DNA from: Polyangium mundeleinium
GTDB taxonomy: Bacteria; Myxococcota_A; Polyangia; Polyangiales; Polyangiaceae
DNA length: 64,000 nt
Assembly: GCF_028369105.1 (NCBI RefSeq)
Contig: NZ_JAQNDO010000001.1
Coordinates: forward strand, 10,572,501-10,636,500
Direction of reading: 5' to 3'
The first letter of the stretch is position 1, and every line of letters begins with the position of its first letter. Under the pieces are notes generated by a model, which saw only the letters and a list, made by a program, of their open reading frames with translations, searched no databases and was not told the origin of the DNA. Of this stretch, positions 1 to 15,762 are shown one piece after another. Position numbers and translations under genes: made by a program.

Positions 1-3000
1 AACACGACCTGCAATGCCTCCGCCACGATCTCGGGCGATAGCGTGAACGACGGCGTCCACATCATCGCCTGATTGAAATGATGTATCTCTTCGGGGTCCT
101 TGTTCAGGAACCAATGCTGGCTCGGCGTCAGCGAAGCCCTGCCGGTCACCGCGCCCTGCTCCACCAAAGCTTCGCTCGAGCTGCGCGCCGCCGGCGAAAG
201 CTCCGCGACCGTCTGGTGCATGAACATGTCACGCACGGTCAAGTGCAAACCGGCTCGCTTGGCTCGCCCCACCACCTGGATCGCGAGGATCGAATCGCCT
301 CCGAGCGCGAAGAAGTTGTCGTGGATTCCCACGGGCGTGGCGCGCAGCACCTCCGACCAGATCTCCGTGAGCGCTTGTTCCGCTTCCGTGCGTGGCGCGG
401 CGTAGGCTGCCTCCGCGGCCTGTCGCGTGTCGTCCGGCGCAGGCAGCCGCCTGCGGTCCACCTTGCCGTTCGGCGAGAGCGGCAGCGCATCGAGGGAGAC
501 GAAGGCCGACGGGATCATGTAATCGGGGAGCCTGCATTGCAGGTGCTCGCGCAACGCGCCCGCCGCCGGCGCGCCGTCCTTCCCCACCACATAGGCGACG
601 ATTCGCTTGTCCCCCGGCGCATCCTCACGCGCCACGACGACGCACGACCCCACCGCGGCGTGCGAGCAGAGCGCCGCCTCGATTTCGCCTGTCTCGACTC
701 GGAACCCTCGGATCTTCACCTGGTGATCGGCGCGACCCAAAAACTCAAGCTCGCCGTCTTCGTTCCAGCGCGCGAGATCCCCGGTGCAGTACATCCGGGC
801 GCCAAGCTCCTTCGAGAAAGGATCCGGGACAAACCGCTCCGCCGTCATGCCAGGACGATTCAGATAGCCACGCGCCAGGCCCACCCCCGCGAGGTGGATC
901 TCCCCTGCCATTCCTATGGGCACGGGCCGCTTGGCGCCATCGAGCACGTGGATCTGCACGCCGTGAACCGGTCGGCCGATCGAAAAACTCTCCGGCCGCT
1001 CTGGATCAAAATAAGCTTGCGCACCGAAGATGCTGAACTCGGTAGGGCCGTAGGAGTTCAGCACGTTCCGGCCCTTCGCCCACTGCGCCGCGAGCGCGGG
1101 CGAGGTCGTGTCGCCCGCCAGCGTGATATGGCGCAGATGGGGTGCGCGACAGTTCAGCACCCGCAGCATCGCGGGCGGGATGAACGACACCGTGATCCCA
1201 CGGTTCTCCAGGCACTCTGCAATGCCCTCGACCGCGCCGGAGGCATTGCTCGGCAACACACACGCGGCGCCGTTGCACAGCGATATCATCCAGTCGATGA
1301 TCGCTCCGTCGAACGCCACCGCTGCGCTCTGCAACACGCGATCGCTCGGATGGATCACGAAGTGCTCGCGCTGGAATGCCACACGCGCGGCCAGCCCCCG
1401 GTGTTCGTTGATCACCGGCTTGGGTTTGCCCGTGGAGCCTGAGGTGAACACCACGTAATTCGCATGCTCGGGCTTGACGCCGCTCTCGGGGGGAGCATCC
1501 GGCTGCGACGCCCATTGCGTCGCGTCCGCGTCGAGCCGCACCATCGTCACACCGGACGCCGTGAACCGGTCCTCAAGGCTTTCGTGCGTCAGCAGCACCG
1601 GTGCCTGCGCTTCGGATAGCAGGAGCGAGAGCCTGTCCGCCGGATATGCCGGATCCAGCGGCACGAATGCGCCGCCTGCCTTCAGGATCCCGACCAGGCC
1701 CACCACCATGTCGAACGACCGCTCCACGCACAGCGCCACGCGCACCTCGGGCCCAACGCCGAGAGAGCGAAGGTGGTGCGCCAGCCGGTTCGCCTGCGCC
1801 TCGAATTCACCATAGCTGAGCTGCCGGCCGTCCTGCTCGAGGGCCACGGCCCCCGGCGCCTTCGCCGCCTGCTCCGCCATGAGCTCGTGAATGCACCGCG
1901 CGGCGGGGTCCACTTTGGGCGTGTCGTTCCACGCGGCGAGTTTCTCCGTCTCCTCTTCAGTCAAGAGGTCCAAGTCCGACAAACGTTTGTCTGGGTGCGT
2001 CGCGGCATCCGTCACCACCGTCCGCAGATGCCCGCACAACCGCTCCGCTGCCGTGCGCGAGACACGCCTCGTGTCGTACAGGACCTCCACGACGGTCCCC
2101 TCGGCGCCGTGGCGGACGGTCACGGCGAGCGCGTTCTTCGCCGTCGTCACGCCCTCCGGCACCGCGCCGAGCAGCGGTGACCAGCCGGCCGCATCTCCGG
2201 TGCTCGGCGGCGTCACCTCGAAGAAGGTCACGTCGAACAGCGGGTTCTCGCCGGCCTGCCGCGAGAGCCCCTGGTCCTGGACCACGACGTCGAATGGCAG
2301 CGCCTGGTGTTCGTACGCGTCCAGCGAAGTCCGCCGCGCACGCGAGAGCAGCTCGGCAAACGTCGGGTCTCCCGAGAGGTCGGTCCGCAGCACAACCGTA
2401 TTCGTGAAAAACCCGAGCATCGCCTCGGTCCCAGCGACCTGGCGATTCGCGAGGACCGCACCGAGGCCGAAGTCCGTCTGCCGGCTGTACCGAGAAAACA
2501 CAGCCGCCAGGGCCGCATACCAGGCCATGAAGGGGGTCGCGTTGCTTTCGTGCGAGAGCGCCTGCATTCGGCGGCTCGTCTCCGGCGACAAATGAAGCGA
2601 GACGCACCCTTCCGGCCCCGAGCCTGCGTCCGAGGGAGGAGAAACCATCGACAGGTCGAGCCGCGGTACGCCGGAGAGAGAATCTTTCCAATAGGCCCGC
2701 GACGCCGCGAGCCCGTCGCTGGCGAGCGCCGACTGCTCTGCGCGCGCATAATCCGAAGAATGGTAGACAAGGGGAGGCAGCGCGGCCGTCCCGCCGCGGC
2801 GCGACGCCTCGTACAGGGACGAGAGCTCCGCGAGCAAGAGCCCCCACGACCATTCATCCGTGATAACGTGGTGCTGGTGCACGACGACGACATGCCTGTC
2901 CGCGGCCGTCTTCACGGCCAGGACCCGGGTCAGCGGGCCACGCTCCAGGTCGAAGCGGGTCTCGACCTCCGCGGCGAGCAGCACCCGGAATGCGGCATCG

Positions 3001-5273
3001 CGCTCTGCTTCGGGCAGGGACGAGACGTCTTCCACGCGAATCGGAATGGCCACGTCGTCCGACACGCGCCGCCTCGGCGTGCCGTCCACCTCCGGATACG
3101 TCGTGCGAAGGATTTCGTGGCGCAATGCCAACGCGCGTACGCTTTCGTGGAGCGCCGGAACTGAGAGCGCGGACACCACCTCGAATACGTGCGGGATCTG
3201 GTACGACCTCGCCTCCGGCGACAGCTTCTCCAAAAACCAGATGCGGCGCTCCGTGCCCGACAGGCCCTCATGAGGAGCCTCGCCCTCCGCGCGTGGCGAG
3301 AGGCGGATTTGCGGCGCAAACGCCGGTCGCTCTGCCCTCGTGTCACAAATTGCCGAAAGCGCCTCGATCGTCGGATGGCGAAACACCGTCGCTACACTCA
3401 GCGCGCCCCCGATCCGCGCCTCGATGGCGGACACGAGGCGAAAGGCCAGGAGCGAATGGCCGCCGAGCCGGAAGAAATTGTCTTTGACCCCGATGGGTCG
3501 CACGTCGAGCAACTCTTCCCAAATGGCTACGAGCGCGCGCTCCGTCTCGGTCCGCGGCGCCACGTACGACGTCTCCGCCTCGCCGCGCGTCGCCTCGGGC
3601 GACGGCAGCGCCTTGCGGTCCACCTTGCCGCTCGGATTCAGCGGCAGCTCCGTCAGCCGCACGAACGCTGACGGCACCATATACTCCGGCAATGTCGCGC
3701 TCAGGTGCTCACGCAATGCGCCCGGCGCCCACCCCTCCTCCGCTGCAACCACGTACCCCACCAGCCGCTTGTCGCCCGACGCGTCCTCCCGCGCCACCAC
3801 CACGCTGCCGCGCACCGACCCGTGCGTCGCGAGCGCCGCCTCGATCTCGCCGAGCTCGATCCGGAACCCGCGGACCTTCACCTGGTGGTCGATGCGGCCC
3901 AGGAATTCAAGCTCCCCGTCCTCCCTCCAGCACGCCAGGTCGCCCGTGCGATACATCCGCACGCCCGCCTCGGGCGAAAACGGGTCTGGAACGAATCGCT
4001 CCGCCGTCAGCTCGGACCGATTCAGGTAGCCGCGAGCGAGCTGCACGCCCGACAGGTACAGCTCCCCCGCTACGCCCACGGGCACCGGGCGCAAATCGTC
4101 GTCGAGCACGTACGTGCGCGTGTTGTCGATCGGACGCCCGATCGGCACCGGCCCCTCCTCGTCCGCCCGGCAGGCGTGGCTCGTCACATCAATGGCCGCC
4201 TCCGTAGGGCCATACAGATTGTGGAGCTCGCCCTTGCTGCCCCCATACCAGGACCCACGCAGGTGCGCCGGCAGCGCCTCGCCGCTCGCGAATACCAGCC
4301 GCAGCGACGCGCGCTCCCGGGGCTCCGTCGCCGCCAGGAACACGCCGAACATCGACGGCACGAAATGCGTCACCGTGACGCCGCGCTCCTCCATGAGCGC
4401 AGCAAGATAACGCGGATCCTTGTGCCCCTCGGGCGCCGCAATCACCATGCGCGCGCCCTCCAAAAGCGGCCACCACAATTCCCAGCCTGACACGTCGAAC
4501 GACAGCGGCGTCTTCTGCAAGACCGCGTCGCTCGCCTTCAGACCGTAGGCGCGCTGCATCCAGCGCAGGCGATTGTCGAGCCCGCGATGCGTGTTCAGCA
4601 CACCTTTCGGCCGACCCGTCGAGCCTGAGGTGTAAATCACGTACATCGCATTGCCCGGCCCTACCTCCACGTCGGGCGGCGTGACCGGCTGCTCCTGCCA
4701 GCGGGCCGCGCCTGCATCGAGGTAGACCGTGACAACCTCATGCGCGGGCAGCCTCCCCTCCAGGCGCTCCTGGGTCAGCAGCACCGCCGGACGCGCGTCC
4801 GTCAGCATGTAGGCCAGCCGTTCCCGCGGATAACCAGGGTCGAGCGGCACGTACGCGCCACCCGCCTTCAGAATGCCGAGCAGCCCCACCACCATCTCCA
4901 GCGAACGCTCGACGCACAGCCCGACCCGCACCTCCGGGCCCACGCACAGCCCGCGCAGGTGGTGGGCGAGCTGATTCGAGCGCTGGTCGAGCTCCCGATA
5001 GGTGAGCTCGTGCTCGCCGAACACCAATGCCACGGCATCAGGCGTCCGCGCGACCTGCTCCTCGAAGAGCTCGTGAATGCACTTGCACTCCGGATACGTC
5101 ACCGCCGTGTTGTTCCACGCCGCCAGCAGGCGCAGCTCGTCGGAGGTGAGCAGGGGCAAGCGCCCCATCGGGCACGCCGGCTCGGCGTGCTCCTCGTTCC
5201 AACGCGCCCCAAGGTCGCCGCGGCGGCCTGCGTCCTGACTCCGAATGCATCCGCTCTCGTCGTGCATGCTCAT
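1..5273 (-). CDS. Non-ribosomal peptide synthetase, loading module plus second module (3' end outside window)
   Basis: Start ATG at 5273; the frame is open to the left edge, so the C-terminus is missing. There is no condensation domain before the first adenylation domain, so this is an initiating A-PCP module. Approximate order on the minus strand: A1 (5130-3640), PCP1 with GGHS (about 3580-3380), C2 (about 3290-1990), A2 (1920-480), PCP2 with GGDS (about 410-200), then the start of an epimerization-like domain (LTPSQHWFL, HHFNQAM). A1 shows STGRPKG and FDVSGWE. Lined up by eye to GrsA, its pocket residues read D-V-W-H-F-S-L-I-D, close to the known serine code DVWHLSLID. The A2 pocket reads D-G-I-F-T-A-S-I-F, which I cannot assign. 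C2 carries HHVITDEWS, that is HHxxxDE instead of HHxxxDG. The GGDS-type PCP followed by an E-like domain suggests a D-configured second residue. It follows mbtH, a thioesterase and a DUF697 gene in one operon. Confidence 0.93.
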   Translation of the reverse strand, partial: MSMHDESGCIRSQDAGRRGDLGARWNEEHAEPACPMGRLPLLTSDELRLLAAWNNTAVTYPECKCIHELFEEQVARTPDAVALVFGEHELTYRELDQRSNQLAHHLRGLCVGPEVRVGLCVERSLEMVVGLLGILKAGGAYVPLDPGYPRERLAYMLTDARPAVLLTQERLEGRLPAHEVVTVYLDAGAARWQEQPVTPPDVEVGPGNAMYVIYTSGSTGRPKGVLNTHRGLDNRLRWMQRAYGLKASDAVLQKTPLSFDVSGWELWWPLLEGARMVIAAPEGHKDPRYLAALMEERGVTVTHFVPSMFGVFLAATEPRERASLRLVFASGEALPAHLRGSWYGGSKGELHNLYGPTEAAIDVTSHACRADEEGPVPIGRPIDNTRTYVLDDDLRPVPVGVAGELYLSGVQLARGYLNRSELTAERFVPDPFSPEAGVRMYRTGDLACWREDGELEFLGRIDHQVKVRGFRIELGEIEAALATHGSVRGSVVVAREDASGDKRLVGYVVAAEEGWAPGALREHLSATLPEYMVPSAFVRLTELPLNPSGKVDRKALPSPEATRGEAETSYVAPRTETERALVAIWEELLDVRPIGVKDNFFRLGGHSLLAFRLVSAIEARIGGALSVATVFRHPTIEALSAICDTRAERPAFAPQIRLSPRAEGEAPHEGLSGTERRIWFLEKLSPEARSYQIPHVFEVVSALSVPALHESVRALALRHEILRTTYPEVDGTPRRRVSDDVAIPIRVEDVSSLPEAERDAAFRVLLAAEVETRFDLERGPLTRVLAVKTAADRHVVVVHQHHVITDEWSWGLLLAELSSLYEASRRGGTAALPPLVYHSSDYARAEQSALASDGLAASRAYWKDSLSGVPRLDLSMVSPPSDAGSGPEGCVSLHLSPETSRRMQALSHESNATPFMAWYAALAAVFSRYSRQTDFGLGAVLANRQVAGTEAMLGFFTNTVVLRTDLSGDPTFAELLSRARRTSLDAYEHQALPFDVVVQDQGLSRQAGENPLFDVTFFEVTPPSTGDAAGWSPLLGAVPEGVTTAKNALAVTVRHGAEGTVVEVLYDTRRVSRTAAERLCGHLRTVVTDAATHPDKRLSDLDLLTEEETEKLAAWNDTPKVDPAARCIHELMAEQAAKAPGAVALEQDGRQLSYGEFEAQANRLAHHLRSLGVGPEVRVALCVERSFDMVVGLVGILKAGGAFVPLDPAYPADRLSLLLSEAQAPVLLTHESLEDRFTASGVTMVRLDADATQWASQPDAPPESGVKPEHANYVVFTSGSTGKPKPVINEHRGLAARVAFQREHFVIHPSDRVLQSAAVAFDGAIIDWMISLCNGAACVLPSNASGAVEGIAECLENRGITVSFIPPAMLRVLNCRAPHLRHITLAGDTTSPALAAQWAKGRNVLNSYGPTEFSIFGAQAYFDPERPESFSIGRPVHGVQIHVLDGAKRPVPIGMAGEIHLAGVGLARGYLNRPGMTAERFVPDPFSKELGARMYCTGDLARWNEDGELEFLGRADHQVKIRGFRVETGEIEAALCSHAAVGSCVVVAREDAPGDKRIVAYVVGKDGAPAAGALREHLQCRLPDYMIPSAFVSLDALPLSPNGKVDRRRLPAPDDTRQAAEAAYAAPRTEAEQALTEIWSEVLRATPVGIHDNFFALGGDSILAIQVVGRAKRAGLHLTVRDMFMHQTVAELSPAARSSSEALVEQGAVTGRASLTPSQHWFLNKDPEEIHHFNQAMMWTPSFTLSPEIVAEALQVV

Positions 5274-5331
5274 CGTATGTCGTGATTGCGTCTCTTGATA
5301 TCCATCCGAGCCCGAGGATCGACCGGCAGGC

Positions 5332-5844
5332 CTACGGCTCCTGCTGCATCGTGGCGACCGTCTCCTTGGCTTTCTCGAACTCCGACCTAAAATGCGACCT
5401 CATGGCGTTCGGATCGAAATCGAGGAACGTACCACCGGTCTCGAAATGCATCGTAAATACCTTGCCAAGCGCATACGTGGCCGCGCCCGCGACGAGCGGC
5501 GTCGAGATGAGCCCGAGAGCCGTGCCGACCACGGGGACGAGCTTGACGAGTCCGTATCCGAGCGTGGCTCCCACGCCCACGCTCCAGGTGCTGGAGATGA
5601 GGGAACCAACGAGCATTGTCACGACCTCATGGGTGAACTTCACCTCGTAAAGGTCGGCGAGCTCCCTCAGCATCTTGAGCTGAACACCCTTGATTGCGAC
5701 GAAGTCGGCGACCGGCACGGGAAGGACGCCCGCCACGAGCGCCCATAAGACGTTCCGCCGTATGATCGCCTCCGCCCGGCCGGCGCGCGAATCGTCCTTG
5801 GTGAACGTCTTGGTTCGATCAGCCTTCGTAGCCTCGCCTGCCAT
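5332..5844 (-). CDS. DUF697-family membrane protein inside the NRPS operon
   Basis: 170 residues from an ATG at 5844. A short charged, basic N-terminus (about 25 residues) is followed by hydrophobic segments around residues 33-55 (ALVAGVLPVPVADFVAIKG) and 82-130 (SVGVGATLGYGLVKLVPVVG), and a charged tail. The P-V-x-D-F-x-A-I pattern followed by LKMLRELADLYEV is typical of DUF697 domains, small membrane modules often fused or adjacent to GTPases. No GTPase is present here. It lies 30 bp after the thioesterase gene and 58 bp before the NRPS start, on the same strand, so it is very likely co-transcribed with them. DUF697 is not a known NRPS helper. A role in product handling at the membrane or immunity is only a guess. 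Confidence 0.8.
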   Translation of the reverse strand: MAGEATKADRTKTFTKDDSRAGRAEAIIRRNVLWALVAGVLPVPVADFVAIKGVQLKMLRELADLYEVKFTHEVVTMLVGSLISSTWSVGVGATLGYGLVKLVPVVGTALGLISTPLVAGAATYALGKVFTMHFETGGTFLDFDPNAMRSHFRSEFEKAKETVATMQQEP

Positions 5845-5874: not shown

Positions 5875-6636
5875 TTACACTTCACCGCGCGAGGCTCCCT
5901 CGAAGGCCTGCCCGACCACGCGCAGCACAGCCGCCTCGGCGGAATGCAGAAAGAAATGGTCGCCCTCGAGGATGCTGAGCGCAAATGGTCCTTTCGTGTG
6001 CTCGCGCCACCCTTCGAGCTGCGCCGACGGCACCGTGTCGTCCTTCGTGCCTCCGATTGCGGTCAGCGGAACATCGAGAGGCTCTGCCGGCACGTGGCGG
6101 TAGGACCGAAGGAGCTCGAAGTCCGCCCGGAAAATAGGCACGAGCAGCTCCATGAGCCCCGGCTCGGCCAGAACGCTCGCGGGCGTTCCGCCATAACGTC
6201 GGATGCAGGAGAGGATGTACGCGTCGGTCAGCTCGCCGGTGGGTGGGTAGGAGTCCGGGATCTGCGCCGCGCGGCGGCCGGAAATGAAAAGGTGCATCGG
6301 CGCCGGAAAGCCGCGCGCGCGCAGCCAGTGGCAAAGCGAAAACGCGACGAGCCCGCCCATGCTGTGCCCGAACATCACGAAAGGGATGCGGCTAGGGGCG
6401 AGCGTCTGCCCGAGCGCCTCCACCAGGGGCTTTAGCCTCGTGATGGGCGCCTCGCGGATTCGCGGCCCTCGGCCTGGAAGCTGCGCGGCGACGAGTTCCA
6501 CGTCGGGCGACAGGTGAGCGGACCAGGTCCTGAAGACCATCGCGTTCGCCCCCGCATAGGGGAAGCAAAAGAGCCGCGCCCGCGGCAATGCCACGGGCCT
6601 GGGCCTCCAGAACCACGCGCCCGGGATCGGCTCCAT
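5875..6636 (-). CDS. Type II (external) thioesterase of the NRPS cluster
   Basis: 253 residues, the normal length for a stand-alone NRPS/PKS editing thioesterase of the alpha/beta-hydrolase fold. The start ATG at 6636 lies 12 bp after the mbtH stop. The N-terminal LFCFPYAGANAMVF strand-loop is characteristic. The nucleophile elbow is GHSMGG with Ser at about residue 92. The acid is probably Asp199 or Asp200 in GGTKDD, and the catalytic His is in GDHFFLH at about residue 227. Such enzymes hydrolyse misprimed acyl or aminoacyl groups from carrier-protein phosphopantetheine arms. Its position between mbtH and the NRPS genes supports a housekeeping role for this assembly line. All triad residues are visible, so it should be active. 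Confidence 0.95.
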   Translation of the reverse strand: MEPIPGAWFWRPRPVALPRARLFCFPYAGANAMVFRTWSAHLSPDVELVAAQLPGRGPRIREAPITRLKPLVEALGQTLAPSRIPFVMFGHSMGGLVAFSLCHWLRARGFPAPMHLFISGRRAAQIPDSYPPTGELTDAYILSCIRRYGGTPASVLAEPGLMELLVPIFRADFELLRSYRHVPAEPLDVPLTAIGGTKDDTVPSAQLEGWREHTKGPFALSILEGDHFFLHSAEAAVLRVVGQAFEGASRGEV

Positions 6637-6648
6637 GGGGTCGGCGAC

Positions 6649-6882
6649 TCAGGCCTGCGACTTGGCCGCAGCCGCAGCCGCGTCCATCTGCTTGCGCAGG
6701 CTGAGCGGCCGCATGTCGGTCCAAACCTCCTCGATATACTGGAGGCACTCCGCGCGCTTCCCGCTCTTCCCCGCCAGGCGCCAGCCCGCAGGGATCTCCC
6801 GGCCGGCGGGCCAGATCGAGTATTGCTCCTCGTGGTTCACGACCACCTCGAAGGTGGTATCTGCGTCGTCGAAGACACTCAT
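6649..6882 (-). CDS. MbtH-like adenylation-domain activator
   Basis: 77 residues starting at the ATG at 6882. An upstream in-frame extension exists, but MSVFDD is the usual start of the family and AGAGGA-like bases precede this ATG at a good distance. The conserved signature is complete: [17 protein letters not shown], then [15 protein letters not shown] with the invariant tryptophans. MbtH proteins bind A domains of NRPSs and are needed for their solubility or adenylation activity. It is the first gene of the operon mbtH, thioesterase, DUF697, NRPS, so its promoter should lie in 6883-7365. The C-terminus after residue 68 is an Ala-rich tail. Confidence 0.95.
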
Positions 6883-7634
6883 CGTGGGTCCTCTTGCGAC
6901 CCCCGGCGTCGAAAGGTCGCCTCGGGATGCGCTGATGTGAATCGATCGCCGGCAAGCGTCGCCCAACAGGGCGGTGACACTGCCGCTGACGACGAACGTT
7001 TGTCTTGGCGCACGCTCGGGGGGCGCCTTTTGCTATCCAGGTTCTCTTTGGGTAGACGTTACGCCCGCGACGTAGCAAGCGCGGTGCCAGCCCATGATAG
7101 GTCTTGCTTGTGCATCGGAGATCGACCTGGCCGCATCCTGTGGTATGACAGCATGGGATGACAGCAGGCCGTTGCCCTCGAACCACCAACCCGCGCAGGT
7201 TGCAGGACGCGATCGAGCGCGCCGGGGCTTTCTAGCGGCGAACAGCGCAGCGAGGCGAAACGCGCGTCGGTGCCTTCGGCCGGGTGCGACCCTCGGGTGG
7301 CCTGGGCCTACCGAGCCGGGGCGTCCCATCGTTCTTTGGAAATGCGACCTACCCTGGCCCGACCGCTGTAACAGGACCTGTAACAGGGCCCTGTTACAGG
7401 TCCTGTTACAGGTCCTGTACGCATCCGTCGGCAGCGCTCGGCCGGTGGCCGCCTCCTTACCGTAAGCGCACGCTCACCGACGAATTTGTGTTCTCGTTCG
7501 GAAAGGTGGCCCAAGCGTTGCAAGGCGCACGCTCGAAGCAGCCACGACGGATCCCCGAGGTGTCCCGCGGCTCGCCATCTCCCATAGCATCGTCGACCAT
7601 CCGGAGCGCAACGGCGAATCCACAGGGTGAACTC
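6883..7634. other. Divergent intergenic region between mbtH operon and multicopper oxidase
   Basis: 752 bases with no convincing gene. It must contain the promoter of the leftward NRPS operon and of the rightward oxidase gene. The only strong structure is the 46-bp palindrome at 7366-7411. A long in-frame extension of the oxidase to an ATG at 7284 exists, but it would translate the palindrome as a low-complexity Thr-Gly-Pro/Cys-Tyr-Arg stretch ahead of the real signal peptide, so I reject it. No clear -35/-10 or sigma54 box was recognised. Confidence 0.6.
7366..7411. repeat. 46-bp perfect palindrome built of CTGTAACAGG units (candidate operator)
   Basis: Two 23-base arms (7366-7388 and 7389-7411) are exact reverse complements, centred on GGGCCC at 7386-7391. 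Each arm holds two copies of a CTGTTACAG unit (reverse complement CTGTAACAG), so the element contains four half-sites about 11 bases apart, one helical turn. A further partial copy (GGTCCTGTAC) follows immediately. It lies about 220 bases upstream of the multicopper oxidase GTG start. The helical phasing suggests cooperative binding of a dimeric or tetrameric regulator. A transcribed strong hairpin is the alternative. Confidence 0.85.
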
Positions 7635-9566
7635 GTGACTTCCCATAACAAATCTTCATCGGATAAAAATTTGGCTCGTGTCACGCTCACATTCGATCGG
7701 CGCCTTTTTTTGAGGATGGGCGCCACGCTCGGCGCTGGCCTCTTGCTGCCCGATACGATCGGTTGCAGCGACGACGACAAGACCCCGACGCCGCAGCCGG
7801 TTCCGAGCAGAGAGCTCTTCAACCCTGCCACGGTCCGAGCCAAGGACGGCCTTCTCGATATCGAGATGACCATCACCGAGGTCGAGGTGACGGTCGGTCA
7901 GTATACGTTCATGACCCGCGCGTACACCGGCCTCAAGGTCAACGCAGGAGAGGCGAACTTCGAGGGAACGTATTCGGGCACGATCCCAGGCCCGAGCGTC
8001 GAGCTTCGCCCGGGTGATCGGCTCAAGCTCAAGCTCATCAACGGCCTCCCGGACGACGGCAGCGCCGTGGACCCCGTCGATTGCGGCATGACCACCAGCG
8101 GCGGCCATGGCGGGCACGGCCCGGGCATGCAAAACAACACGACCAACTTCCACACGCACGGTCTGCACGTCGACCCCGGGCCGCCCGGAGATGACGTCTT
8201 CTTGGCGATTGGTCCTGGCCAAAGCTACGACTTCGTCATCGACATCCCCAAAGACGTCGTCATGCCGGATGGGACGATGGCCGATCATCCGGCCGGGACC
8301 TACTGGTATCACCCACACTTCCACGGCGCGACGGCCATCCAGGTGGCAGGCGGCATGGTGGGGGCCCTCATCATCCGCGATGAATGGCAAGACGATCTCG
8401 ACAAGATGTTTTCACCCGAGCCCGCGCCGGGCCAGGGCAAGGAGCAGCTCCTGGTCGTCGGTGAGCTCATGCTCCAGACCAAGGATCCATGCAATGGGAA
8501 AATCCGCCTCGCGACGTACGGTGAAATGGGCCATTCCGGCCCCTTGCCTGATAACGTTGTGGATTTCTTCCACGTCAACGGCCAGATCAACCCGATCCTT
8601 CGCATGCATCCGAGTGAGGTGCAGCGCTTCCGGGTCCTTCACACGGGCTTCCGTGCTCCGCTGGACATCGCCTTCCTCCGCGTACCGGACGATCAGGTGG
8701 ACGCCGCAACGTCGTTGCCGAAGCCCGACTATAATCCTTTCGACTATTCTTGCGCGAGCAACGGGGGGCCGCCCGTGCTCAACCGGGACGCGTTGCGGGC
8801 GAAGTCGGTCACGTACTACCAGGTCGCGACGGACGGGATCACCTACGCGGCGCCCCTGAAGATGCCGATGACCAACGCCGTTTCGGAGGTCGAGTATGTC
8901 ATCCCGCCGGGAGGCCGCGCGGACATGCTCGTCCAATTCGAACCGGGCACCTACCAGATGGTGGCGCTCGGCTACCTGGACTTCGTCTGCTGGGAGCCGC
9001 AGGTCCTCGCCACCGTGATCGTCTCGGGGACGCCAGACACGAGCCTTCAGATCCCGCAAGCACTCACGCCTCCGGCGCTTTACCCGTCCTTCGACGACAT
9101 GGCGAAGCCCGGCAACCAGATCGACAAGAGCCGCCAGCTCGACTTCGCCGTGTCCATCGATGCGCAAGGAACACATTTCACCATCGACGGCAGGACGTTC
9201 TGCGAAACCCGTATCGACCAATGCATGGCTCTGGGCGCCGTGGAGGAATGGACGATCAACAACAAGGCGGCAGTGGCGTCGGTCCATCCCTTCCACATCC
9301 ACGTCAACTCGTTCCTTGTGACGTCCATCAACGGGAAGAAGCCGGCACAGTCCATCTGGCGCGATACGTTTCTCATCCCCACGGGCGACATGATGGGCGT
9401 CGACGGCACCCTGACGTTCCTGTCGCGCTTCCTGCATTTCGAGGGCAAGTACGTGCTGCACTGCCACATCCTGGAGCACGAGGATGAAGGCATGATGCAG
9501 CTCCTCGAGGTGAAGAAGGACGCGCTATGTGAACCGTCGATGACCGACACGTGCCCGATGCCGTGA
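7635..9566 (+). CDS. Exported multicopper oxidase
   Basis: 643 residues from a GTG at 7635. This start is chosen because it leaves a short polar n-region followed by DRRLFLRMGATLGAGLLLP, a Tat-type signal, with a cysteine (TIGC) that may make it a lipoprotein. All copper ligand clusters are present: NFHTHGLH (about residue 172), WYHPHFHG (about 225), HPFHIHVNS (about 551) and HCHILEHEDEGMM (about 609). That gives intact type 1, 2 and 3 copper sites, in the usual three-cupredoxin arrangement. Likely activities are oxidation of phenolics or of Cu(I)/Mn(II) in the periplasm or at the surface; the substrate cannot be read from sequence. It converges with the FHA activator gene, 11 bp away. The palindrome at 7366-7411 is its likely control element. 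Confidence 0.93.
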   Translation: MTSHNKSSSDKNLARVTLTFDRRLFLRMGATLGAGLLLPDTIGCSDDDKTPTPQPVPSRELFNPATVRAKDGLLDIEMTITEVEVTVGQYTFMTRAYTGLKVNAGEANFEGTYSGTIPGPSVELRPGDRLKLKLINGLPDDGSAVDPVDCGMTTSGGHGGHGPGMQNNTTNFHTHGLHVDPGPPGDDVFLAIGPGQSYDFVIDIPKDVVMPDGTMADHPAGTYWYHPHFHGATAIQVAGGMVGALIIRDEWQDDLDKMFSPEPAPGQGKEQLLVVGELMLQTKDPCNGKIRLATYGEMGHSGPLPDNVVDFFHVNGQINPILRMHPSEVQRFRVLHTGFRAPLDIAFLRVPDDQVDAATSLPKPDYNPFDYSCASNGGPPVLNRDALRAKSVTYYQVATDGITYAAPLKMPMTNAVSEVEYVIPPGGRADMLVQFEPGTYQMVALGYLDFVCWEPQVLATVIVSGTPDTSLQIPQALTPPALYPSFDDMAKPGNQIDKSRQLDFAVSIDAQGTHFTIDGRTFCETRIDQCMALGAVEEWTINNKAAVASVHPFHIHVNSFLVTSINGKKPAQSIWRDTFLIPTGDMMGVDGTLTFLSRFLHFEGKYVLHCHILEHEDEGMMQLLEVKKDALCEPSMTDTCPMP

Positions 9567-9577
9567 GCCGGTCATGA

Positions 9578-11001
9578 TCACCCGCGATACGTGTCGACGC
9601 TGATCGAGAATCTCTGTATCCAGCGGTGGATCTGGACCCGCGACTTGCCCATGTCGCGCGCAACCCCGCTCACGTTGCCCCTGTGCTTCTCGAGCAGCGC
9701 CACGATACGCCCGCGCAACGCGTCCGGCGCCGTGTCCCTCTCGTCCTCGGGCTCCGGCGCCACGACGCTCTCCTCTTCGGGTGGCGCGACGGTTCCGAGG
9801 CTCCGCTCGATCAAGTGCGCGCGCTCGATGAGCGGCCCGTCCGCGAGCGCAGCCGCGACCCCGAGGACCTGCGAGAGCTCCCGGATGTTGAGCGACCACG
9901 GCTGCGACAAGAGCCACTTGCCCGCCTGTAGGGTGAAACCAAGCTCGCTCGCGCCCGGCACCTTGGAGCGCCCCAAGAGATCACGGACCAAGATCCCCAT
10001 GTCCTCGATCCGATCCCGCAGCCGCGTGAGCGTGTGCCGATGCCCGGAGAGCCGCGCGAGCAAGTCGACCCGAAGCTCGCCCCGGATGGCCATCTTGTCG
10101 AGCGGCTTGTGCGTCGCCGCGACGACGCGCAGATCCACCTTGATGGGGTTCGAACCACCGACGGGTACGACTTCGTTCTCCTCGAGCACGCGCAGGAGCG
10201 CGGCCTGCGCGGGCAGCGGGAGATCGCCCACCTCGTCGAGGAAGAGCGTGCCGCCGTCCGCCCGGCGCACATAGCCCGGCTCGTCCCGGATGGCCCCCGT
10301 GAACGCGCCCTTGACATGTCCGAAGAGCTGGCTCTCGAGCAGCGACGCCGTGAGCGCCCCGCAATTGACGGCGACGAGCGGCCCGGCGCGCCCCGAGCGC
10401 GTGTGGATGTTGCTCGCGAGCACCTCCTTGCCCGTGCCCGACTCGCCGAGGAGGAGCACCGGGATCGGCGCGCGCGCGATACGAGCGAGGGCGTCGAGCT
10501 CGTCCGCGAGCGGCGGGACGAGCGTTTGGAGCCCCCTGGCCTCCGGGGTATCGAGTTCGAGATCCGCGGCGGAGGTGGGCGAAGAAGGCAAGCCCGCGCG
10601 ATAACGCAGGATGACGTTGCCGAGCTCGATGAAATCACCGTCCGAAAGCGCGATCTTCGTGACGCGCCTGTCATTGACATAGGAGCCGTTCCTCGAGCCT
10701 GCGTCCTCGAACACCCACGTGTCGCCGCTCCTGACGAGGCGCCCCTGGGTCTTCGAGATGGTCGCGTCGGGCAGGCGCAGATCGAGCCGCCGCACGCCGC
10801 CCTCGCAGATGCGCGAGGCGACGCGCGAGGCGCCGCGCCCGATGTCGACGACGTCGAGCTCCGCGAGGCCATACCGCGCTCCGCCGAGCGCCGGCTGGCC
10901 ACAATGGAGCACGACGAACAGGAAGGGACGCGCGAGGGGCTGCGCCCTCCGCTGCTCGCGCACGGGGTCCTGGGTGGTACCGAGCGAGATCAACTTCCTC
11001 G

Positions 11002-11005
<4 letters not shown>
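9578..11005 (-). CDS. FHA-domain sigma54-dependent transcriptional activator
   Basis: 475 residues. An N-terminal FHA domain (about 45-130, with SRNGSYVN typical of the phosphothreonine-binding loop) replaces a response-regulator receiver. It is followed by the AAA+ activator domain: Walker A GESGTGKE (about 188), the sigma54-contacting GAFTGA loop (about 231), Walker [13 protein letters not shown], and a C-terminal Fis-type helix-turn-helix ([19 protein letters not shown]). This architecture is common in myxobacteria, where a threonine-phosphorylated partner controls the activator. The start overlaps the stop of the upstream kinase gene by 4 bases (ATGA), so the two are translationally coupled and the kinase is the obvious input. 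The usual NVREL segment reads SLNIRELSQ here. Confidence 0.95.

Positions 11006-15762
<4,757 letters not shown>

What the first reader, a model, noticed from the sequence alone, without database searches (positions are those of the whole stretch)
7366..7411. 46-bp perfect palindrome upstream of multicopper oxidase
Two 23-base arms match perfectly and are built from four CTGTAACAG/CTGTTACAG units about 11 bases apart plus a fifth partial unit. Perfect symmetry of this length is far beyond chance and the helical phasing fits an operator for a multimeric, possibly copper-sensing, regulator. It also lies between the oxidase and the NRPS operon promoter and may control both.
Basis: partly seen in the sequence, partly recalled or inferred. 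Interest (0 to 1): 0.62.

Follow-up and report, generated by a model that had tools for sequence, protein, structure and literature searches.

The report
Enhancer array between two sigma-54 promoters
The 46-base palindrome is real and is most likely a cluster of landing sites for a neighbouring activator protein (a sigma-54 enhancer-binding protein with a kinase partner) that switches on, in opposite directions, a copper-dependent oxidase gene and a non-ribosomal peptide gene cluster in the soil bacterium Polyangium.

Summary
The palindrome is confirmed: 7366-7411, 23+23 bases, no mismatch, unique in the 13.25-Mb genome, not a repeat family. It is made of CCTGTWACAGG units 12/13/12 bp apart. 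An array of such units lies between mbtH and the multicopper oxidase (MCO) in all six Polyangium genomes held (degenerate in one), but the perfect dyad does not recur: sister-species mismatches are uncompensated.

It sits between two divergent sigma-54 (-24/-12) promoters, 7074-7089 (-) towards mbtH-TE-NRPS and 7507-7522 (+) towards the MCO: the best and a joint-second-best match in the 64-kb window. The MCO is always followed by an FHA-domain sigma-54 activator (bEBP) and a WD40 Ser/Thr kinase. Related arrays elsewhere (other MCOs, peptidases, a small gene, paralogous kinase/bEBP loci, another genus with the bEBP ortholog) have a -24/-12-like element 53-143 bp beyond the array, in the same orientation; seven of ten groups score 11 or more, where chance is 0.7% each. 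Nannocystis MCO orthologs lack array and promoter.

Best reading: a shared enhancer array for the kinase-linked FHA-bEBP. Binding is inferred, not shown.

The parts
7366..7419 (.). Enhancer-like array: four CCTGTWACAGG units (7366, 7378, 7391, 7403) forming the perfect 46-bp palindrome 7366-7411, plus a partial fifth unit CCTGTA at 7414-7419
   Evidence: array present at the same place in all six Polyangium genomes
7507..7522 (+). Predicted sigma-54 -24/-12 promoter TGGCCCAAGCGTTGCA towards the multicopper oxidase, about 85 bp past the array
   Evidence: score 11 of 13; conserved in the other five species
7074..7089 (-). Predicted sigma-54 -24/-12 promoter TGGCACCGCGCTTGCT towards mbtH and the NRPS operon, about 273 bp from the array
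   Evidence: score 12 of 13, best in the window; conserved in the other five species
7635..9566 (+). Multicopper oxidase gene (Cu-oxidase_2, Cu-oxidase_3; twin-arginine-like N-terminus by eye)
   Evidence: Pfam; 83-91% identical orthologs in five Polyangium genomes
9578..11005 (-). FHA-domain sigma-54 activator (bEBP) with GAFTGA motif and C-terminal HTH; proposed binder of the array
   Evidence: Pfam; GAFTGA; conserved next to the MCO in all six species
11002..15762 (-). Ser/Thr protein kinase with nSTAND1 and WD40 repeats; its end overlaps the bEBP start by 4 bp; proposed input to the bEBP
   Evidence: Pfam; conserved synteny, truncated at this locus in G005
6649..6882 (-). mbtH, first gene of the divergent NRPS operon
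   Evidence: Pfam MbtH
5875..6636 (-). Type II thioesterase gene of the NRPS operon
   Evidence: Pfam Thioesterase
1..5399 (-). Start of the NRPS gene (runs on beyond the window; a second NRPS gene and two ABC transporter genes follow)
   Evidence: Pfam Condensation, AMP-binding, PP-binding, ABC_tran on L034

Best explanation
The palindrome is a dense upstream activating (enhancer) array for a sigma-54 enhancer-binding protein, most likely the FHA-domain bEBP encoded convergently next to the oxidase. Proposed mechanism: the WD40 Ser/Thr kinase receives an unknown signal; the FHA domain of the bEBP reads the resulting phospho-threonine; bEBP dimers bind the CTGTWACAG-type units, assemble into the ATPase ring, loop the DNA and open RpoN-polymerase at two divergent -24/-12 promoters, turning on the multicopper oxidase and the mbtH-NRPS operon. 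The symmetry of the array suits divergent promoters. Shown by sequence: array, promoters, conserved synteny, co-occurrence. Inferred: binding, kinase input, looping, signal.
For: Two outward-facing -24/-12 elements flank the array: best and joint-second-best of the window, conserved in six species. bEBP with FHA, GAFTGA and HTH, plus kinase, conserved beside the MCO in all six. RpoN present. Ten independent groups of related arrays, found without using promoters, all have a -24/-12-like element 53-143 bp beyond the array in its tail direction; seven score 11 or more (chance 0.7% each), the others 10, 9, 9; the opposite direction of non-MCO1 sites never reaches 10. Paralogous FHA-bEBP/kinase pairs carry their own related arrays and -24/-12 elements, three of them directly after the bEBP stop codon. 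In another genus holding a 73% bEBP ortholog the profile's only hit is a hexamer array with a -24/-12 element; inspected weak hits in genomes without the ortholog are not arrays. Nannocystis MCO orthologs have no array and no -24/-12 element scoring above 9, and no bEBP ortholog beside them. EBP repeats 80-150 bp upstream of -24/-12 are the rule (PMC7910581).
Against: No binding or expression data. The genome encodes many bEBPs (165 first-look candidates), so another could bind. Several related sites (M20, small gene, second MCOs, G036) are not next to a bEBP. The mbtH promoter is 273 bp from the array here. The array is only modestly better conserved than its flanks (0.86 against 0.80). The promoter null used random positions, so enrichment over ordinary promoter regions is less than stated. 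Two of ten groups have only weak promoters (score 9).
Confidence: 0.75

Rival explanations
1. Operator of a copper-sensing repressor or activator (CopY, CueR, CsoR or CorE-like) that controls the oxidase in response to copper.
For: Sites lie upstream of three different MCO genes; in M. xanthus the MCO gene cuoB is copper-controlled through the ECF sigma factor CorE (PMC3107203).
Against: The CopY box TACANNTGTA is absent from 7362-7421 (read directly). Sites also precede peptidase, amidohydrolase and other genes. No copper regulator gene is conserved beside the array; a bEBP and kinase are. Outward sigma-54 promoters flank it.
Confidence: 0.08
2. A sigma-54 enhancer as above, but bound by a different bEBP encoded elsewhere, the adjacent FHA-bEBP being an unrelated neighbour.
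For: Many bEBPs in the genome; several related sites have no bEBP nearby.
Against: The bEBP is next to the array in all six species; paralogous bEBP loci carry their own related arrays; array found in the other genus that has the ortholog; absent with the MCO in Nannocystis.
Confidence: 0.12
3. Palindrome acting as an RNA hairpin, terminator or attenuator in a transcript of the intergenic region.
For: A perfect 23-bp inverted repeat would fold strongly if transcribed (inference).
Against: It lies upstream of both predicted promoters. Mismatches in four sister species (3, 1, 2, 4) are all uncompensated. No terminator-like site was found at the palindrome.
Confidence: 0.03
4. Selfish or neutral repeat (MITE, REP, or hexanucleotide microsatellite) without regulatory role.
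For: Unit number varies and G001 has tandem ACAGGT hexamers, so slippage contributes.
Against: Unique in the genome; same place in six species and in none of 91 other relatives; related sites precede -24/-12 elements in one orientation.
Confidence: 0.02

Closest known systems
Nla28 EBP sites at sigma-54 natural-product promoters of Myxococcus xanthus (PMC7910581, PMC9765219)
   Same: bEBP repeats upstream of -24/-12 promoters of natural-product loci; clusters of 3-5 half-sites in many promoters
   Different: Half-site CT(C/G)CG(C/G)AG, not TGTWAC; spacing irregular; Nla28 is a two-component response regulator, not an FHA protein; many promoters lie inside genes
GcsR enhancer of the Pseudomonas aeruginosa gcs2 operon (PMC4894688); TyrR box
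   Same: Three tandem bEBP sites upstream of an RpoN promoter; half-site TGTAAC resembles TGTAAC/TGTTAC here
   Different: 18-bp sites TGTAACG-N4-CGTTCCG for a TyrR-like, glycine-responsive protein; single direction; no FHA domain or kinase
FHA-domain EBPs of M. xanthus (Jelsbak et al. 2005, seen only as a cited reference in PMC12288465)
   Same: Same protein architecture class: FHA plus sigma-54 activator
   Different: That paper was not read here; binding sites not compared
CorE-controlled multicopper oxidase cuoB of M. xanthus (PMC3107203)
   Same: Regulation of a myxobacterial multicopper oxidase
   Different: Copper-dependent ECF sigma factor, not a sigma-54 enhancer

Membership tests
sigma-54 enhancer (UAS) bound by a bEBP | Repeated or dyad sites upstream of a -24/-12 promoter, typically 80-150 bp | tested here: met
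   MCO side 63-87 bp past the array in six species; mbtH side 71-146 bp in four and about 270 bp in G000 and G005
sigma-54 enhancer (UAS) bound by a bEBP | -24/-12 promoter with invariant GG and GC | tested here: met
   scores 12 and 11 of 13; conserved in all six species
sigma-54 enhancer (UAS) bound by a bEBP | Competent bEBP and RpoN encoded | tested here: met
   GAFTGA, AAA+, HTH; Sigma54_DBD E 1e-64
sigma-54 enhancer (UAS) bound by a bEBP | The bEBP binds the site | not testable with these tools
   only co-occurrence and synteny
sigma-54 enhancer (UAS) bound by a bEBP | Transcription depends on RpoN and the bEBP | not testable with these tools
   no expression data
Copper-responsive operator of CopY type | cop box TACANNTGTA | tested here: not met
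   absent from 7362-7421
MITE/REP repeat family | Many copies at unrelated sites | tested here: not met
   one array in the genome
PhoB (Pho) box | CTGTCAY direct repeats 11 bp apart | tested here: not met
   units are CTGTWACAG at 12-13 bp, partly inverted; Pho-box-like sites CTGTCACAGTCCTGTCACA precede a pst-like transporter in G002 and G005

The most novel reading that the evidence does not exclude
Polyangiaceae carry a family of self-contained kinase-to-promoter cassettes (WD40/nSTAND Ser/Thr kinase, FHA-bEBP, private enhancer array built of 6-bp half-sites, sigma-54 promoter, effector gene). Their arrays co-vary with the bEBP paralog and control different effectors (oxidases, an NRPS operon, peptidases, an amidohydrolase). 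The array in this window has become symmetric because it serves two divergent promoters.
Probability: 0.5. Interest if true: 0.6.

Novelty: new member of a known kind. Interest (0 to 1): 0.47.

Why it matters
It gives a concrete DNA motif, a small regulon and a candidate activator for a kinase-linked FHA-bEBP in Polyangium; no such motif turned up in the papers searched. It ties a multicopper oxidase and an NRPS cluster to one signal and makes both testable by mutating one 55-bp element. It also offers a handle for switching on a natural-product cluster.

Tried and rejected
Repeat family: rejected by genome-wide pattern search. Sigma-70 promoter and terminator scan: nothing at the palindrome. 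Full-text search for the 9-mer CTGTAACAG: 144 papers, none relevant among the 20 listed. Searches pairing Polyangium with sigma-54 or enhancer binding gave one paper each and nothing on this motif. Hairpin/attenuator: uncompensated mismatches in sister species. Pho-box reading: spacing and sequence differ. The single-unit site at C1:10278499 first looked like background but proved to share the extended core CTGTTACAGGTACA and a -24/-12 element. G000:C1:7732979 (E 2.9) has no promoter at a fitting distance and was dropped.

Full report
OBSERVATION. The palindrome exists as stated: 7366-7388 / 7389-7411, 23 + 23 nt, 100% complementary, no spacer. It is the longest perfect palindrome in the window (next 18 bp) and about 8e-9 are expected by chance. 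It is built of CCTGTWACAGG units starting at 7366, 7378, 7391 and 7403, so spacing is 12/13/12 bp rather than about 11, with a partial fifth unit CCTGTA at 7414-7419. In the 13.25-Mb genome the two-unit pattern, even with two mismatches, occurs only here; it is not a dispersed repeat.

CONSERVATION. Of 97 genomes searched, the two-unit pattern (up to 1 mismatch) was found in five of the six of the same genus and in none of the 91 others. Four same-genus contigs match named Polyangium records (P. fumosum DSM 14668 and strains y55x31, 15x6 and 6x1) in contig length and coordinates. The sixth genome (G001) has a degenerate version at the same place. In all six the array lies between mbtH and the multicopper oxidase. 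The number of units varies (six near-consensus units in G002; ACAGGT hexamers in tandem in G001). The perfect dyad is not kept: four sister species have 3, 1, 2 and 4 unpaired positions in the stem and none is compensated. What is conserved is the units and their arrangement (central A mostly on the left, T on the right), with a right-hand tail CTGTTACAGGTACA in five species. Array identity is 0.86 against 0.80 for the rest of the intergenic region.

PROMOTERS. A scan for sigma-54 -24/-12 elements (TGGCACGRNNNTTGCW, invariant GG and GC) found 4 hits at 11 or more of 13 in 128,000 strand-positions of the window. Two are in this intergenic region and face outward: 7074-7089 (-) TGGCACCGCGCTTGCT (12, best of the window) towards mbtH, and 7507-7522 (+) TGGCCCAAGCGTTGCA (11) towards the MCO. 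Both are conserved in the other five species. The array lies upstream of both and would not be transcribed from either.

ACTIVATOR. The gene converging on the MCO (9578-11005, -) encodes FHA + sigma-54 activation domain + HTH, with an intact GAFTGA. Its start overlaps by 4 bp the end of a Ser/Thr kinase gene with nSTAND1 and WD40 domains. The order MCO-bEBP-kinase is conserved in all six species, although the kinase at this locus is truncated in G005. RpoN is encoded in the genome.

RELATED SITES. A sequence profile of the sites (R1, built) searched over the genus and the pattern searches found: an M20 peptidase in G002 and G003, a small gene next to a CocE-like hydrolase in G000 and G003, an S8 peptidase beside a kinase copy in G005, and a divergent second MCO in G002. 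A weak site before a second MCO in G001 was found by reading its upstream region. In each case a -24/-12-like element follows within 53-134 bp in the direction of the array's tail. The promoter elements were not used in finding these sites.

TEST OF THE BINDER. Paralogous FHA-bEBP/kinase pairs (bEBP 56-62% identical) were then examined. The one in the own genome has CGTTACAGTAACCGTTACAGTAACTGTTAC (12-bp repeats) followed at 143 bp by TGGCATGCACGTTGCT. Those in G005 and G001 have GTACACGTACAGGTACAGGTACACC and GTACACGTACGAGTACACGTACACC immediately after the bEBP stop codon, followed at 77 and 62 bp by TGGCATTGGCGTTGCA and TGGCATCGGCCTTGCT. A further G001 pair has a weaker version (promoter score 9). 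In G036, another genus with a 73% bEBP ortholog and a 74% kinase ortholog, the profile's only hit (E 0.2, 49 kb from the bEBP) is a hexamer array GTTACAGGTACCGGTACAGGTACACC with TGGCATCGGGTTTGCC 115 bp on. Of nine other genomes five gave no hit; two of the four weak hits were inspected and are not such arrays, and two were not inspected. Nannocystis orthologs of the MCO have no array, no -24/-12 element above score 9 and no orthologous bEBP (one of eight loci has a 29%-identical bEBP nearby). Over ten independent site groups, seven have an element scoring 11 or more where a random position has 0.7%; in the opposite direction none of the non-MCO1 sites reaches 10. The null used random positions, coding and non-coding alike; promoter regions will be richer than that, so the contrast with the opposite direction is the fairer control.

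MECHANISM. Best reading: bEBP dimers bind the units, oligomerise, and activate RpoN-polymerase at both divergent promoters by looping; the FHA domain and the kinase suggest control by threonine phosphorylation. Array, promoters, synteny and co-occurrence are shown by sequence. Binding, the kinase-FHA link, the inducing signal and the use of the array by the mbtH promoter (273 bp away here) are inferred. The copper idea rests only on MCO genes being among the targets; peptidases and other genes share the site.

LITERATURE. In M. xanthus sigma-54 and the EBP Nla28 directly control natural-product promoters, and EBP repeats typically lie 80-150 bp upstream of -24/-12 (PMC7910581); Nla28 promoters often have 3-5 clustered half-sites (PMC9765219). 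GcsR binds three tandem TGTAACG-N4-CGTTCCG sites (PMC4894688). The M. xanthus copper-controlled MCO cuoB uses the ECF sigma factor CorE instead (PMC3107203). No paper describing this motif in Polyangium was found in the held library.

VERDICT. A real, conserved cis-element: a new member of a known kind (sigma-54 enhancer), with an unusually dense and symmetric architecture and a plausible kinase-linked activator.

Noticed in passing
L038, L039, L041, L043, L044 (Nannocystis), about 130-290 bp upstream of the MCO start: A shared sequence AAGTTCGAAGTTTTTTGGATCGC, part of a near-palindrome AAAAAAGTTCGAAGTTTTTT, stands upstream of five of eight Nannocystis orthologs of the MCO; it may be a different operator.
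   Followed up: partly
G005: L029 10583-13186 and L171 6341-11077: In Polyangium sp. 15x6 the kinase at the MCO locus is truncated, while a full-length copy (84% identical to the window's kinase) sits on another contig beside a second array and an S8 peptidase gene that appears frameshifted.
   Followed up: partly
L235 about 7500-7910 (own genome, C1 near 8,626,900): The paralogous bEBP locus of the own genome has a 12-bp repeat array and a -24/-12 element before a gene whose product matches Pfam Bac_thur_toxin (Cyt-like fold family).
   Followed up: partly
L114 and L136 near position 1501: Pho-box-like sites CTGTCACAGTCCTGTCACA lie upstream of a phosphate-transporter-like permease gene in G002 and G005.
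   Followed up: no
window 5332-5844 (-): A DUF697 gene lies between the thioesterase and NRPS genes of the operon; its role there is unclear.
   Followed up: no
window 7089-7366 compared with L026-L030: In this genome and G005 the array is about 270 bp from the mbtH -24/-12 element, against 71-146 bp in the other four, because of extra sequence in between.
   Followed up: partly
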